Shown: positions 4,153-8,071 of the stretch, piece by piece
How positions within the stretch are numbered: the stretch's first letter is position 1
How the letters are laid out: the number at the start of each line of letters is the position of its first letter
Assembly: GCA_015064345.1 (NCBI GenBank)
Contig: SVSK01000016.1
Span: 1 to 42,072, forward strand
Length of the DNA: 42,072 bases
From: Oscillospiraceae bacterium
GTDB taxonomy: Bacteria > Bacillota > Clostridia > Oscillospirales > CAG-272
Reading direction: 5' to 3'
Notes under the pieces: model-generated
What the model was told of the DNA's origin: nothing
The model's input: the letters and a program-made list of their open reading frames with translations, nothing else
Databases searched by the model: none
Program-made: the position numbers and the translations under genes

Positions 4153-4863
4153 ATGAAAATAAAGAAGATAAGAAAAATGAACGAGGCGGCATGGGTGATA
4201 GGTATCATCGTGTGCGCCCTTGGCGTATGCATGTGTACAAAAGCTAATTTCGGTCTTTCAATGATCGCGGCTCCCCCGTACATACTTCACGTTTGGCTCA
4301 GAGATATGCTTCCGTGGTTTACGCAGGGAACGTCTGAGTACGTTTGGCAGGCGCTTGTTATGGTAATTATGTGCGTTGCCATACGTGGCTTTAAGGCGAG
4401 ATATCTACTCTCATTCGGCACTGCGGTGCTGTCAGGACTCGCTCTTGACGGGTGGATATGGATTTTTGGCGGCAACGGTGCTTACGAGGAGATGTGGCTC
4501 CGCATAGTGATGTTTGTTGTGGGAGAGCTTGTTACAACTCTCGCTGTGGCATTTATCTTCAGAACGACCCTGCCTATTCAGATATATGAGCTTGCTGTGT
4601 GCGAGATTGCCACGAAATTCGGCTTTGATAAGAATAAAGTGAAGCTTGTGAACGATATTCTGATGCTTGTTGTGTCGGCGATAATGTCATTCGTACTCAC
4701 AGGTGGACTCGGTGGATTTGGCGTTGGAACTATCCTTATCACCATTGTGAACGCACCGCTGATCGCAATGTTCGGCAAGTTGATCGACAAGATGTTCGTG
4801 TTTGACTCCCGTTTTCCGAAATTATTCGGTGATGGAATGAAGATTAGCGAAAAAAACAGCTGA
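4153..4863 (+). CDS. YczE/DUF6198-like integral membrane protein
   Basis: The 236-residue product is hydrophobic, with about five predicted membrane segments: near residues 13-30, 65-78, 84-100, 113-135 and 170-205. The opening (EAAWVIGIIVCALGVCMCTKANFGLSMIA, residues 11-39, quoted only as an area) and the glycine-rich GGLGGFGVGT before the last segment match the YczE-type membrane proteins common in Firmicutes (DUF6198). Their substrate is unknown; some relatives sit near regulators and transporters. It has its own promoter and no obvious terminator before the tRNA promoter that starts 27 bases after its stop. The family call is moderate and no function is claimed. Confidence 0.7.
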   Translation: MKIKKIRKMNEAAWVIGIIVCALGVCMCTKANFGLSMIAAPPYILHVWLRDMLPWFTQGTSEYVWQALVMVIMCVAIRGFKARYLLSFGTAVLSGLALDGWIWIFGGNGAYEEMWLRIVMFVVGELVTTLAVAFIFRTTLPIQIYELAVCEIATKFGFDKNKVKLVNDILMLVVSAIMSFVLTGGLGGFGVGTILITIVNAPLIAMFGKLIDKMFVFDSRFPKLFGDGMKISEKNS

Positions 4864-5304: not shown

Positions 5305-5377
5305 GCGGATTTAGCTCATTTGGTAGAGCGCAACCTTGCCAAGGTTGAGGTGGCGGGTTCGAGCCCCGTAATCCGCT
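5305..5377 (+). tRNA. tRNA-Gly (anticodon GCC)
   Basis: A 73-base cloverleaf. The acceptor stem is 5305-5311 with 5370-5376, with discriminator T. The anticodon loop is TTGCCAA. It is separated from tRNA-Phe by a 95-base spacer with two inverted repeats (GCACGAT/ATCGTGC and the 8-bp GAATTTCT/AGAAATTC). That spacing is unusually long for a tRNA operon. Confidence 0.95.
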
Positions 5378-5380
5378 TAA

Positions 5381-5418
5381 CAAAAAACCACTCTCATAAG
5401 AGGGTGGTTTTTTGTTAC
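5381..5418 (+). terminator. intrinsic terminator of tRNA operon 1
   Basis: The stem CCACTCTC/GAGGGTGG with loop ATAA is flanked by A6 and T6 (arms about 5382-5395 and 5400-5413). It directly follows tRNA-Gly and is also the head of repeat unit U1. Confidence 0.9.
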
Positions 5419-5541
5419 ACAGACTATGAGGATGAAAAGCCGCCTGCAAGTTTCAAACTGAATAAACATCTAAACTTCAGCATATGAAACTTGTCACCCA
5501 CGAAGGGGTAGGGGTTCAGAGCCCCGTGGTGTGGATGAACA
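5391..5541 (+). repeat. composite repeat unit U1 (long form, 151 bp)
   Basis: Order: right half of the terminator hairpin with T6; a constant spacer to GATGAAAAGCCG; a 51-bp insert with 9-bp inverted ends (5443-5493); then a block with ACCC/GGGT and GGGGTT/AGCCCC stems. A one-base deletion (GAAGGGG for GAAGTGGG) shortens the first stem here. Other units start at 5542, 6270, 6421 and 6522. Confidence 0.85.
5443..5493 (+). repeat. 51-bp insert with 9-bp terminal inverted repeats (in U1)
   Basis: CAAGTTTCA (5447-5455) and TGAAACTTG (5485-5493) are perfect reverse complements around a 29-base interior. The insert is missing from the otherwise matching units U4 and U5, so those are natural empty sites. 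It resembles a tiny MITE or an optional RNA hairpin. Confidence 0.8.
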
Positions 5542-5682
5542 CTCTCATAAGAGGTTGGTTTTTTGTTACACAGACTATGAGGATGAAAAGCCGCCTGCAA
5601 GTTTCAAACTGAATAAACATCTAGACTTCGGCATATGAAACTTGTCACCCACGAAGTGGGTAGGGGTTCAGAGCCCCGTGGG
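5542..5682 (+). repeat. composite repeat unit U2 (long form)
   Basis: Same plan as U1, with T at 5555 instead of G in the terminator arm and two changes inside the 51-bp insert (5594-5644). The ACCCAC/GTGGGT stem with loop GAA is intact. Its 3' end (GTGGG) leads into non-repeat DNA and the promoter of tRNA operon 2. Confidence 0.85.
5594..5644 (+). repeat. 51-bp inverted-repeat insert (in U2)
   Basis: Arms CAAGTTTCA at 5598-5606 and TGAAACTTG at 5636-5644 are perfect. The interior differs from U1 at two bases; the arms do not. Confidence 0.8.
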
Positions 5683-5769
5683 TTGAGTCATGAAAATAGC
5701 TTTAGTTGGAAGATGGTTTCGCTTGCGCAGTGGTGCAACAAAAAAATCCAATATTTTTTCAAAATACTA
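5683..5769 (+). other. unique spacer before tRNA promoter 2
   Basis: About 87 bases with no convincing gene. Part of a possible small frame (5635-5850) crosses it, but that frame runs from repeat unit U2 to the first bases of the tRNA and is rejected. TTGC and GCAA arms near 5728 form a weak inverted repeat. Confidence 0.5.
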
Positions 5770-5798
5770 TTGACAAACAAAACATCATATGGTATAAT
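5770..5798 (+). promoter_or_regulatory. consensus promoter of tRNA operon 2
   Basis: TTGACA (5770-5775) and TATAAT (5793-5798), 17-bp spacer, again an exact consensus. The surrounding bases differ from promoter 1. Both leaders begin CATCCGTC and both can fold into a hairpin. Confidence 0.9.
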
Positions 5799-5840
5799 AA
5801 CATCCGTCGGTGAGAGAAATCTACTGACAGACACCAAAAT

Positions 5841-5913
5841 GGAAGCATAGCTCAGTTGGGAGAGCATCTGCCTTACAAGCAGAGGGTCATAGGTTCGAGC
5901 CCTATTGTTTCCA
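5841..5913 (+). tRNA. tRNA-Val (anticodon TAC), second copy
   Basis: Base-for-base identical to 4962-5034: same acceptor stem, anticodon loop CTTACAA and T-arm. First gene of tRNA operon 2. Confidence 0.95.
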
Positions 5914-5917
5914 TTGA

Positions 5918-5991
5918 GGCCCGGTAGTTCAGTTGGTTAGAACGCTAGCCTGTCACGCTAGAGGTCAGGGGTTCGAGTCCCCTTCGGGTCG
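5918..5991 (+). tRNA. tRNA-Asp (anticodon GTC), second copy
   Basis: Identical to 5039-5112. Anticodon loop CTGTCAC. Confidence 0.95.
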
Positions 5992-6015
5992 TTTCCGGAA
6001 AGAGACCGGAGACAC

Positions 6016-6088
6016 GCCTCTGTAGCTCAGTTGGTAGAGCAGGGGATTGAAAATTCCCGTGTCGTTGGTTCAATTCCGACCGGAGGCA
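6016..6088 (+). tRNA. tRNA-Phe (anticodon GAA), second copy
   Basis: Identical to 5137-5209. Anticodon loop TTGAAAA. Confidence 0.95.
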
Positions 6089-6183
6089 TCGCACGATAGT
6101 GCATAGAGAGCAGAAATGAAGTTAGTTGCATCGTGCACTGAATTTCTTATAAGAAATTCCGACGGATATCTGAACTCTGAAAT

Positions 6184-6256
6184 GCGGATTTAGCTCATTT
6201 GGTAGAGCGCAACCTTGCCAAGGTTGAGGTGGCGGGTTCGAGCCCCGTAATCCGCT
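6184..6256 (+). tRNA. tRNA-Gly (anticodon GCC), second copy
   Basis: Identical to 5305-5377. Anticodon loop TTGCCAA. The 95-base spacer before it is identical too. Confidence 0.95.
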
Positions 6257-6259
6257 TAA

Positions 6260-6297
6260 CAAAAAACCACTCTCATAAGAGGGTGGTTTTTTGTTAC
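6260..6297 (+). terminator. intrinsic terminator of tRNA operon 2
   Basis: Same A6-CCACTCTC-ATAA-GAGGGTGG-T6 hairpin as in operon 1. Two further terminator-like hairpins follow in units U4 and U5. Confidence 0.9.
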
Positions 6298-6420
6298 ACA
6301 GACTATGAGGATGAAAAGCCGCCTGCAAGTTTCAAACTGAATAAACATCTAAACTTCAGCATATGAAACTTGTCACCCACGAAGGGGTAGGGGTTCAGAG
6401 CCCCGTGGTGTGGATGAACA
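6270..6420 (+). repeat. composite repeat unit U3 (long form, copy of U1)
   Basis: Identical to U1 (5391-5541), including the 51-bp insert at 6322-6372 and the one-base deletion in the first stem. It arose with the large duplication. Confidence 0.85.
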
Positions 6421-6521
6421 CTCTCATAAGAGGGTGGTTTTTTGTTACACAGACTATGAGGATGAAAAGCCGTCACCCACGAAGTGGGTAGGGGTTCAGA
6501 GCCCCGTGGTGTGGATGAACA
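6421..6521 (+). repeat. composite repeat unit U4 (short form, 101 bp)
   Basis: Terminator arm with T6, constant spacer, then directly the double-hairpin block: ACCCAC/GTGGGT at 6475-6480 and 6484-6489, then GGGGTT/AGCCCC. The 51-bp insert is absent, so this is an empty site. Confidence 0.85.
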
Positions 6522-6611
6522 CTCTCATAAGAGGGTGGTTTTTTGTTACACAGACTATGAGGATGAAAAGCCGTCACCTACGAAGTGGGTAGGGGTTCAG
6601 AGCCCCGTGGG
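6522..6611 (+). repeat. composite repeat unit U5 (short form)
   Basis: Same as U4 with one change, CCCAC to CCTAC (6576-6581). That change turns a C-G pair into a T-G pair and keeps the stem. Last unit of the array. Confidence 0.85.
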
Positions 6612-6668
6612 TTGTTGCGATTGAGACAATTTCACTGCAGTTATCGAATTTAGTTAAATATTTTCATA

Positions 6669-6906: not shown

Positions 6907-6917
6907 TGTATGTGACT

Positions 6918-7466
6918 ATGGTACTTGAATTTTTGGCAACCGGCTTTGAAGAGATCGAGGCACTCACCCCCGTTGATGTGCTTCGCCGTGCGGGAGTTGA
7001 TGTCAGAACTGTTGCTGTCGGAGTAGAAGGTAAAACTGTTCTCGGTGCTCATGAGATTCCCGTGGAAGCTGACCTGACAATGGAAGAGGCACTTGAACTC
7101 AAAGATAATATAGAAATGATAATTCTTCCCGGCGGAATGCCCGGATCAAAGAATCTTGACGAATCTCTTGAGGTTGACACCTTTGTTCGCCGCGCGGCAG
7201 AGGATGGCAAATACATCGCGTCAATTTGTGCGGCTCCAATGATTCCCGGCAAACGTGGACTTCTTAGGAGAAAGCGCGCTGTTTGCTATCCGGGATTTGA
7301 GGAATTCCTCGAGGGTGCTGTTCTCACAGGCGGCAGAGTTGAGGTTGACGGAAATATGATTACAGCATGCGGCATGGGTGCGGCTCTTGAGTTTGCCCTT
7401 GCCCTGACACAGCTTTTGAAAGGAGAATCTGCAGCGGCTATGCTTAAGTCTGCGGTACTTGCGTGA
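6918..7466 (+). CDS. DJ-1/PfpI family protein
   Basis: The 182-residue cytosolic protein is of the DJ-1 branch. It opens with FLATGFEEIEALTPVDVLRR, has the nucleophile elbow cysteine in ICAAP (C104), and E14 aligns with the acidic partner of that cysteine (E18 in human DJ-1). The family includes deglycase or glyoxalase III-like and redox-sensing proteins; the exact activity is not settled. An in-frame GTG at 6912 is an alternative start, but ATG 6918 matches family N-termini. Neither has a visible Shine-Dalgarno site, and a palindrome lies directly upstream. It is the first gene of a four-gene operon and its stop overlaps the next start (TGATG). Confidence 0.88.
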   Translation: MVLEFLATGFEEIEALTPVDVLRRAGVDVRTVAVGVEGKTVLGAHEIPVEADLTMEEALELKDNIEMIILPGGMPGSKNLDESLEVDTFVRRAAEDGKYIASICAAPMIPGKRGLLRRKRAVCYPGFEEFLEGAVLTGGRVEVDGNMITACGMGAALEFALALTQLLKGESAAAMLKSAVLA

Positions 7467-8071
7467 TGATTAAAAAGCAAAAAGATGATATCAGAGAAGA
7501 GTACAGAGAAAAACGTCGCAATATGAACGCCGAGGAGCGATTCAAGAGAGATTCCGCTATCTGCAATGCGGCAATCGGACTTGTAAGCTTCCGTTATGCG
7601 GAATACGTGCTCCTGTATGCTCCTACAGCAGAGGAAATAGACGTTATGCCTATTGCCCGTGCGGCGCTTGAGAAGGGAAAGACAGTCCTTTTTCCCCGTT
7701 GTGACAAAAAAACTCATACCATGACATATCACTCCGTTAAGTCGCTTGATGAGCTTGTGATCGATTCATACGGAATTGCAGAGCCTCCGGAAACAAACCC
7801 CATTTACGACCCGAGTGAGATTGGCGCAGCGGTATGCTTCGTGCCCGGTCTGGTTTATGATAAGGCGGGCTACCGTCTCGGCTATGGCAAGGGCTTCTAC
7901 GACAGATATCTGTCCGGATTCTCGGGATGTACTATAGGTATTGTTTATTCCGATTATATCCTTCCTGTTGTTCCGAGAGGAAGATTTGACGTGACTGTTG
8001 ATATTCTTCTTACCGAAAAAGGAGTTCGTGTCACAAAGGATGACAAAAAGACACGCTCCGGAAAGGGTTAA
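7466..8071 (+). CDS. 5-formyltetrahydrofolate cyclo-ligase
   Basis: ATP-dependent enzyme that turns 5-formyl-THF into 5,10-methenyl-THF, recycling an inhibitory folate form. The 201-residue length fits the family. The signature is FVPGLVYDKAGYRLGYGKG followed by FYDRYL, which binds substrate and ATP phosphates; the basic N-terminus (KKQKDDIREEYREKRRNM) is also typical. The ATG at 7466 shares its A with the DJ-1 stop (TGATG), so it is probably translationally coupled. A GTG at 7463 is the other choice. Folate enzymes next to unrelated membrane genes are common in Firmicutes, so the operon says little about function. The assignment is secure. Confidence 0.93.
   Translation: MIKKQKDDIREEYREKRRNMNAEERFKRDSAICNAAIGLVSFRYAEYVLLYAPTAEEIDVMPIARAALEKGKTVLFPRCDKKTHTMTYHSVKSLDELVIDSYGIAEPPETNPIYDPSEIGAAVCFVPGLVYDKAGYRLGYGKGFYDRYLSGFSGCTIGIVYSDYILPVVPRGRFDVTVDILLTEKGVRVTKDDKKTRSGKG

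What the first reader, a model, noticed from the sequence alone, without database searches (positions are those of the whole stretch)
5391..6611. Composite hairpin repeat family attached to the tRNA operons
Five units follow the two tRNA operons. Each joins (a) an intrinsic terminator hairpin with T6, (b) a constant spacer, (c) in three units a 51-bp insert and (d) a block able to form two consecutive stems, ACCCAC-gaa-GTGGGT and GGGGTT-cag-AGCCCC. The block is kept in U5 by a C-to-T change that leaves a T-G pair. Its second stem with TTCAGAG resembles a tRNA T-arm. The units are not genes, and the repeated terminator is far more than one tRNA operon needs. They may be processed 3' trailers, decoys for tRNA-processing enzymes, or a non-coding repeat that spreads with terminators.
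Basis: partly seen in the sequence, partly recalled or inferred. Interest (0 to 1): 0.72.

Follow-up and report, generated by a model that had tools for sequence, protein, structure and literature searches.

The report
Palindromic repeats copying tRNA tails
The repeats after the two tRNA operons are one narrow branch of short hairpin-forming DNA repeats that sit behind many different tRNA genes, most of which end in a copy of the tail of the very tRNA gene they follow, which looks like the trace of a tiny mobile element matched to its target.

Summary
The five units are real, and they are one case of something genome-wide. In the window's genome all 31 hits of two covariance models lie behind a tRNA transcription unit on the same strand, covering 14 of 28 units. 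The wider form (model R1) occurs in 96 of 394 sampled genomes of the order. Of 131 R1 matches, 109 have a same-strand tRNA or tmRNA gene within 1 kb upstream; 89 of these end in that gene's own last 17 nt with at most 2 mismatches (79 exact), over 27 isoacceptors plus tmRNA. Non-cognate control: 0 of 10260. The copy starts in the T-loop. R1 stems covary, but G-T is hardly commoner than A-C (92:68, against 159:13 in tRNA stems), which argues for a DNA palindrome rather than a processed RNA. The window's own units are a narrow class (model R2; 12 of 25 genomes of the genus; only this genome among 295 of the order) with a partial tail: T-arm copied, acceptor lost. Best reading: minimal, non-autonomous repeats that integrate at tRNA T-loops. 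No recombinase and no movement were shown.

The parts
5305..5377 (+). tRNA-Gly (gcc), last gene of operon 1; its T-arm is the one copied
5378..5417 (+). unit 1: terminator hairpin with T6 (18-bp stem)
5418..5442 (+). unit 1: constant spacer. The matching spacer of G006 is the best antisense match to tRNA-Gly among 36 tRNA types, this one is not (rank 16)
5443..5493 (+). unit 1: 51-bp insert = stem P2 (GCAAGTTTCA / TGAAACTTGT at 5446-5455 / 5485-5494)
5496..5509 (+). unit 1: hairpin P3, shortened (ACCC / GGGT)
5511..5527 (+). unit 1: copy of the tRNA-Gly T-arm with one extra A; acceptor part not copied
5540..5681 (+). unit 2: short terminator, spacer, P2 (51-bp insert), P3 5647-5661, T-arm copy 5663-5679; last unit behind operon 1
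   Evidence: R2 match 5573-5687
6184..6256 (+). tRNA-Gly (gcc), last gene of operon 2
6257..6418 (+). unit 3: same as unit 1 (long terminator, spacer, P2, P3, T-arm copy 6390-6406)
   Evidence: R2 match 6301-6414
6419..6519 (+). unit 4: short terminator, spacer, no P2, P3 6475-6489, T-arm copy 6491-6507
   Evidence: R2 match 6452-6515
6520..6614 (+). unit 5: short terminator, spacer, no P2, P3 6576-6590 with one T-G pair, T-arm copy 6592-6608; last unit behind operon 2
   Evidence: R2 match 6553-6616

Best explanation
The units are decayed members of a family of short palindromic DNA repeats that settle a few tens of bases behind tRNA and tmRNA genes. The full form (classes 1 and 2, model R1) reads: antisense of the tRNA T-arm (P1') - stem P2 with an apical hairpin - hairpin P3 - direct copy of that gene's own 3' end, from the T-loop on. 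The window's form (class 3, model R2) reads: spacer - P2 - P3 - T-arm copy, with or without the acceptor part. SHOWN: these anatomies, the cognate tails and their sharp T-loop start, covarying stems, tandem stacking, both forms within one array (Ser-gga, Glu-ttc). INFERRED: that the two classes are one family; that the repeats are non-autonomous integrative elements whose target is the T-loop of a tRNA gene, so that each insertion leaves a copy of the 3' end at its far side (attR-like) and brings its own terminator; that unequal recombination then changes unit number; that the palindrome is kept at the DNA level (hairpin recognition on single strands, or copying between arms). The enzyme was not found.
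For: Tails: 89 of 109 R1 matches with a tRNA/tmRNA within 1 kb upstream carry its own last 17 nt with at most 2 mismatches, 79 exact (8 of the 131 matches are training units); 0 of 10260 non-cognate comparisons. Identity starts at C56 in 70 of 89, as in T-loop integration: Dehalococcoides ssrA islands insert in mid T-loop and leave a 20-bp copy of the ssrA 3' end (PMC3146451, passages). A unit also stands behind tmRNA (L166). Successive tails are followed by unrelated terminators (e.g. three behind Ser-gga), as with an island in tRNA-Met that brings its own. In that locus (L158) a unit's tail is directly followed by the left end of a similar, shortened island. Cores behind different tRNAs of one genome are more alike (0.798, 89 pairs) than behind the same tRNA in different genomes (0.707, 188 pairs); in G050 5 of 5 such genes have exact own tails, in G276 4 of 7 have own tails. 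Stems lack a strand bias: G-T 92, A-C 68. The core also occurs in viral contigs in other palindromes.
Against: No recombinase, circle or gain of a unit was seen: a motif scan of 294 loci found recombinase-like ORFs at only three tRNA places, one of them with a unit, though most stretches are short. Within the own genus the core likeness does not favour the same genome (0.733, 37 pairs, against 0.762, 42 pairs). 20 of 109 matches lack the own tail; 22 of 131 have no tRNA within 1 kb, many at contig edges. Units missing in G006 look like losses rather than empty sites (Gln-ctg). R1 does not match the window at E <= 1, so the window's link to R1 rests on anatomy, shared arrays and T-arm copies. 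The antisense-arm reading of the class 3 spacer is weak: the cognate tRNA ranks first in 2 of 12 units. Folding energy slightly favours the tRNA strand (-0.90 +/- 0.35 kcal/mol, 77 of 124).
Confidence: 0.45

Rival explanations
1. No mobility: a chance tail duplication behind tRNA genes, kept alike by local mutation mechanisms. Slippage duplicates the 3' end with its terminator, template switching at the fork makes and repairs palindromes, and gene conversion keeps each tail like its tRNA gene.
For: Strict Watson-Crick stems without strand bias. A T/C difference in the Leu-gag acceptor between G000 and G006 is mirrored in the copies. The two Gly operons and unit 1/3 are identical although their upstream regions differ.
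Against: Does not explain one core type behind many tRNAs of a genome (G050, G276), unrelated terminators after successive tails, or the core in viral contigs.
Confidence: 0.2
2. RNA function: each unit is transcribed with the tRNA and acts as a tail mimic, i.e. a trailer, a decoy for tRNA-processing or CCA-adding enzymes, or a switch in which the antisense arm competes for the T-arm.
For: Covarying stems; two elements inside a tRNA operon without a terminator before them must be transcribed (L167); among the 60 CCA-encoding cases the commonest right end of identity is exactly CCA (17); slight folding advantage of the tRNA strand.
Against: G-T to A-C is 26:15 without P1 and 92:68 in all, against 159:13 in tRNA stems of the same loci. 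In 66 of 89 cognate cases the unit lies 16-58 nt behind the gene, and where I read the sequence a terminator mostly lies between. Most sampled genomes of the order have no R1 match (298 of 394), so it is not a general need.
Confidence: 0.15
3. Host-made decoy attachment sites: tail copies behind a tRNA gene lure tRNA-integrating islands away from it.
For: In L158 a shortened island starts directly behind a unit's tail. Two tRNA-Ser genes with a recombinase ORF behind them (G000 Ser-cga, G006 Ser-tga) have no further copy of their tail on their contigs, while G000 Ser-tga has units and none was seen there.
Against: In the same locus the tRNA itself also holds an island. Only one such case; no recombinase ORF behind other units in the stretches held. 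Most tails lack the 5' half of the T-arm that integrases would need (recalled).
Confidence: 0.1

Closest known systems
tRNA/tmRNA-targeted genomic islands, e.g. Dehalococcoides ssrA-GIs (PMC3146451, passages read)
   Same: Copy of the RNA gene's 3' end starting in the T-loop; tandem units behind the gene.
   Different: Islands are kilobases long with a recombinase and genes and use one target; these units are about 60-160 bp, without genes, behind 27 tRNA types plus tmRNA, each with its own tail.
REP/MITE-like palindromic repeats (recalled)
   Same: Short, non-coding, palindromic, shared core within a genome; core also seen in other palindromes in viral contigs.
   Different: In the genomes searched with the strict core pattern, all 23 hits were R1 places (compared); the ends match a neighbouring gene, which such repeats are not known to do (recalled).
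Integron cassette arrays with attC sites (recalled)
   Same: Arrays of units ending in foldable imperfect palindromes; genes between units in two places (type II restriction-modification pair in L160, deaminase in L166).
   Different: Ends are a tRNA tail; the attC core consensus was not seen by eye; no integron integrase was searched for.
Structured RNA families of Rfam 15
   Same: Covarying stems.
   Different: No unit reaches a family's gathering score in the window or in 20 loci; G-U bias absent.

Membership tests
tRNA/tmRNA-targeted integrative element | direct copy of the target gene's 3' end at the far side | tested here: met
   89 of 109; control 0 of 10260. In the window only the T-arm part is copied.
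tRNA/tmRNA-targeted integrative element | recombinase gene or a helper that moves it | tested here: not met
   none within the units; motif scan of 294 loci found recombinase-like ORFs at three tRNA places only; helpers elsewhere in the genomes not sought
tRNA/tmRNA-targeted integrative element | excision, circle or new insertion | not testable with these tools
   needs strains or experiments
REP/MITE-like palindromic repeat | short palindrome, many copies, shared core | tested here: met
REP/MITE-like palindromic repeat | dispersed intergenic places and a partner transposase | tested here: inconclusive
   23 of 23 core hits in 15 genomes are R1 places; viral contigs show other places; transposase not sought
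functional structured RNA | compensatory changes in stems | tested here: met
   R1 covariation 0.442 against at most 0.112 when slid; R2 0.524 against at most 0.286, but 'further pair types' not above shuffles (288 of 500)
functional structured RNA | G-U tolerated more than A-C on the transcribed strand | tested here: not met
   92:68 against 159:13 in tRNA; tested on R1 only
functional structured RNA | expression with defined ends | not testable with these tools
   no RNA data

The most novel reading that the evidence does not exclude
A new kind of mobile DNA: a palindromic core whose two ends pair with the conserved T-loop of whichever tRNA or tmRNA gene it meets and are extended by copying that gene's 3' end outward, so that every new copy carries ends made from its target: a short antisense arm on the left and the full tail on the right. 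One element could then reach nearly any tRNA gene.
Probability: 0.2. Interest if true: 0.9.

Novelty: new variant of a known kind. Interest (0 to 1): 0.7.

Why it matters
tRNA genes are classic landing sites of bacterial mobile DNA (established knowledge, recalled). A repeat whose ends match each of many tRNAs would show a way to use them all without one recombinase per target, and would make T-loop recombination easy to follow. It also warns annotators that tRNA-tail copies behind tRNA genes need not mark large islands.

Tried and rejected
Exact 18-mer of block D: one hit in genome contigs (Actinoplanes, judged unrelated), none in viral contigs. DNA similarity: none in phages, two short plasmid matches judged chance. 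DNA search with the G006 copy reached only G000, G006 and one 21-nt match, so covariance models were needed. Rfam: (window) only tRNAs; (20 loci) only tRNAs and one Gut-1 at gathering, sub-threshold rows left aside. A small gene in the spacer was considered by eye and dropped. The reading of the window's spacer as an antisense arm of tRNA-Gly, which I had favoured, did not hold when tested (rank 16 of 36 tRNA types; the G006 spacer ranks first). Integron attC, group II intron, bridge RNA and retroviral primer sites were considered from memory only and not tested. R2 gave only the window's genome among 295 of the order. Literature: seven answered searches listed no description of such repeats; only open-licence papers are held, and of one paper (PMC3146451) I read passages.

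Limits. R1 loci are the best-scoring ones plus 52 regions chosen from their listings, not a random sample. One search used 70 of the 80 matches (8 repeats in overlapping loci and 2 weak ones dropped). A5 and A6 are fitted to the R1 structure; misaligned cells add equally to G-T and A-C. 8 of 131 R1 matches are training units; 7 of the 12 R2 training units are from G000. Over 40 genomes the search tool scores only some candidates, so genome tallies are lower bounds.

Full report
The window. Two tRNA operons (Val-Asp-Phe-Gly) end at 5377 and 6256. Behind them lie two and three units.

Not only here. A plain DNA search finds the units only in this contig of the genome (G000, 2.0 Mb, 79% complete). 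G006, of the same genus, has a related array behind the same tRNA-Gly and one behind tRNA-Glu. The Glu copy ends in the 3' end of tRNA-Glu (1 mismatch in 17), and the last Gly copy of G006 ends in GCGTAATCCG, close to the tRNA-Gly end. Test on the tRNA genes found in both genomes (71 after removing repeats): 21 of 71 have their own last 17 nt again, with at most 2 mismatches, in the 700 bp downstream, against 14 of 4658 non-cognate pairs. The window's own tRNA-Gly is not among the 21: its copies stop after the T-arm (6 mismatches in 17).

Anatomy. Units behind Leu, Trp, Ser, Glu and Gln tRNAs share one form: antisense T-arm, P2 with apical hairpin, P3, copy of the 3' end. Model R1 from 8 of them: 87.0% of cells paired, covariation 0.442 against at most 0.112 when slid. 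The window's units align instead with units behind Val, Pro, Met, Ser and Glu tRNAs (class 3): 79.9% paired, covariation 0.524 against at most 0.286 when slid; further pair types are not above shuffles. So the 51-bp insert is stem P2 and block D is P3 plus the T-arm copy. That the spacer is an antisense arm is not supported in general: the cognate tRNA is the best match for 2 of 12 class 3 spacers, among them the Gly unit of G006, and ranks 16 of 36 for the window. R1 does not match the window. The classes are tied by their plan, by tails or T-arm copies of the upstream tRNA, and by standing in the same arrays (Ser-gga in L076, Glu-ttc in L070).

Distribution. R1 matches 13 of 25 genomes of the genus (E <= 0.01), 96 of 394 of the order (E <= 0.001) and 10 of 391 of the class (E <= 0.0001). 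Seven of those 10 are outside the order; in 6 of these 7 a tRNA lies in the stretch with at least one match. R2 matches 12 of 25 of the genus and only G000 among 295 of the order. In G000 all 31 hits of both models (6 R1, 25 R2, 7 of the latter training units) lie within 1.5 kb behind a tRNA transcription unit on the same strand, 14 of 28 units. Arg-acg has a weak R2 hit, Ser-gct and Leu-caa have own-tail copies. Of 19 R2 hits in other species I examined 16: 5 have an exact own tail (Arg, Ser twice, Tyr, Met), 9 have a same-strand tRNA or tmRNA upstream without the full tail, 2 have no tRNA in the stretch.

Cognate tails of R1. First set: 70 matches, 56 with a same-strand tRNA upstream, 48 of these with its tail at <= 2 mismatches, 42 exact. 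Larger set: 131 matches, 109 with a tRNA/tmRNA within 1 kb, 89 with its tail (79 exact), 20 without; 22 have none within 1 kb, many at contig edges. Non-cognate tails, all offsets scanned: 0 of 10260. The 89 cover 27 isoacceptors and tmRNA. Identity starts at C56 in 70 of 89. Of 60 cases that encode CCA, 17 end exactly at CCA, 8 earlier, 23 run 4-13 nt further and 12 reach the 16-nt limit of the count. In 66 of 89 the unit begins 16-58 nt behind the gene. In a 4.0-Mb single-contig genome two units stand inside a tRNA operon, behind Arg and Gln, without a terminator before them (L167).

DNA or RNA. If stems were kept as RNA on the tRNA strand, G-U should exceed A-C. In tRNA acceptor and T stems of the same loci it is 159:13. 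In R1 it is 92:68, or 26:15 without P1, and the apical stem is Watson-Crick in 625 of 640 cells. Misalignment blurs both counts alike. Against this, the tRNA strand folds slightly better (-0.90 +/- 0.35 kcal/mol; 77 of 124). Class 3 was not tested.

Spread. Cores behind different tRNAs of one genome: mean identity 0.798 (89 pairs); behind the same tRNA in different genomes: 0.707 (188 pairs). Within the own genus: 0.733 (37) against 0.762 (42), so no such signal there. In G050 five genes, tmRNA included, share a core type and all five have exact own tails; in G276 seven tRNAs share a core type and four have own tails. A strict core pattern in 15 carrier genomes gave 23 hits in 9 genomes; each overlaps an R1 match. 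A core pattern hit seven viral contigs; in the six I looked at the core sits in other palindromes, with no tRNA beside it.

Islands and cargo. In G006 an island of about 8.4 kb with a Phage_integrase gene sits in tRNA-Met. Behind its far end, which repeats the tRNA from the anticodon loop on, come a terminator and an R1 unit with the tRNA-Met tail, and directly behind that tail a sequence like the island's left end. In G434 a TdeIII-type endonuclease and a DNA methylase lie between units behind tRNA-Ser. In G050 a 23S_rRNA_IVP gene and a deaminase lie between two units behind tmRNA.

Reading. Tails that start in the T-loop are what T-loop integration leaves; ssrA islands of Dehalococcoides do this at one gene (PMC3146451, passages). 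Unrelated terminators behind successive tails fit separate arrivals. I take the units to work like minimal, non-autonomous tRNA-targeted elements; membership is not claimed, since no recombinase or movement was shown. How the ends come to match so many tRNAs is open: copying from the target is the boldest answer, conversion with the tRNA gene the plainest.

Noticed in passing
L074 559-632 (+) and 652-742 (-): Rfam Gut-1 RNA (60.7 bits, gathering 50) and a second match just under the cut-off on the other strand, behind the tRNA-Trp unit.
   Followed up: no
L160 1883-4514: Type II restriction-modification pair (RE_TdeIII endonuclease, N6_N4_Mtase) between units behind tRNA-Ser.
   Followed up: partly
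L166 1239-2600: Units behind tmRNA with a 23S_rRNA_IVP gene and a deaminase between them.
   Followed up: partly
L158 570-8950: Island of about 8.4 kb in tRNA-Met with a tyrosine recombinase next to the tRNA.
   Followed up: partly
L159 640-846: A second copy in G006 of the tRNA-Met fragment, terminator and R1 unit, with a broken tail.
   Followed up: no
L189-L195: The core hairpin inside larger intergenic palindromes of viral contigs.
   Followed up: partly
window 4153-4860 and 6912-8068: Neighbours of the array: a DUF6198 protein upstream, DJ-1/PfpI and 5-FTHF cyclo-ligase genes downstream.
   Followed up: no
L078 and L092: Recombinase-like ORFs behind tRNA-Ser genes that have no further copy of their tail on the contig.
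   Followed up: partly
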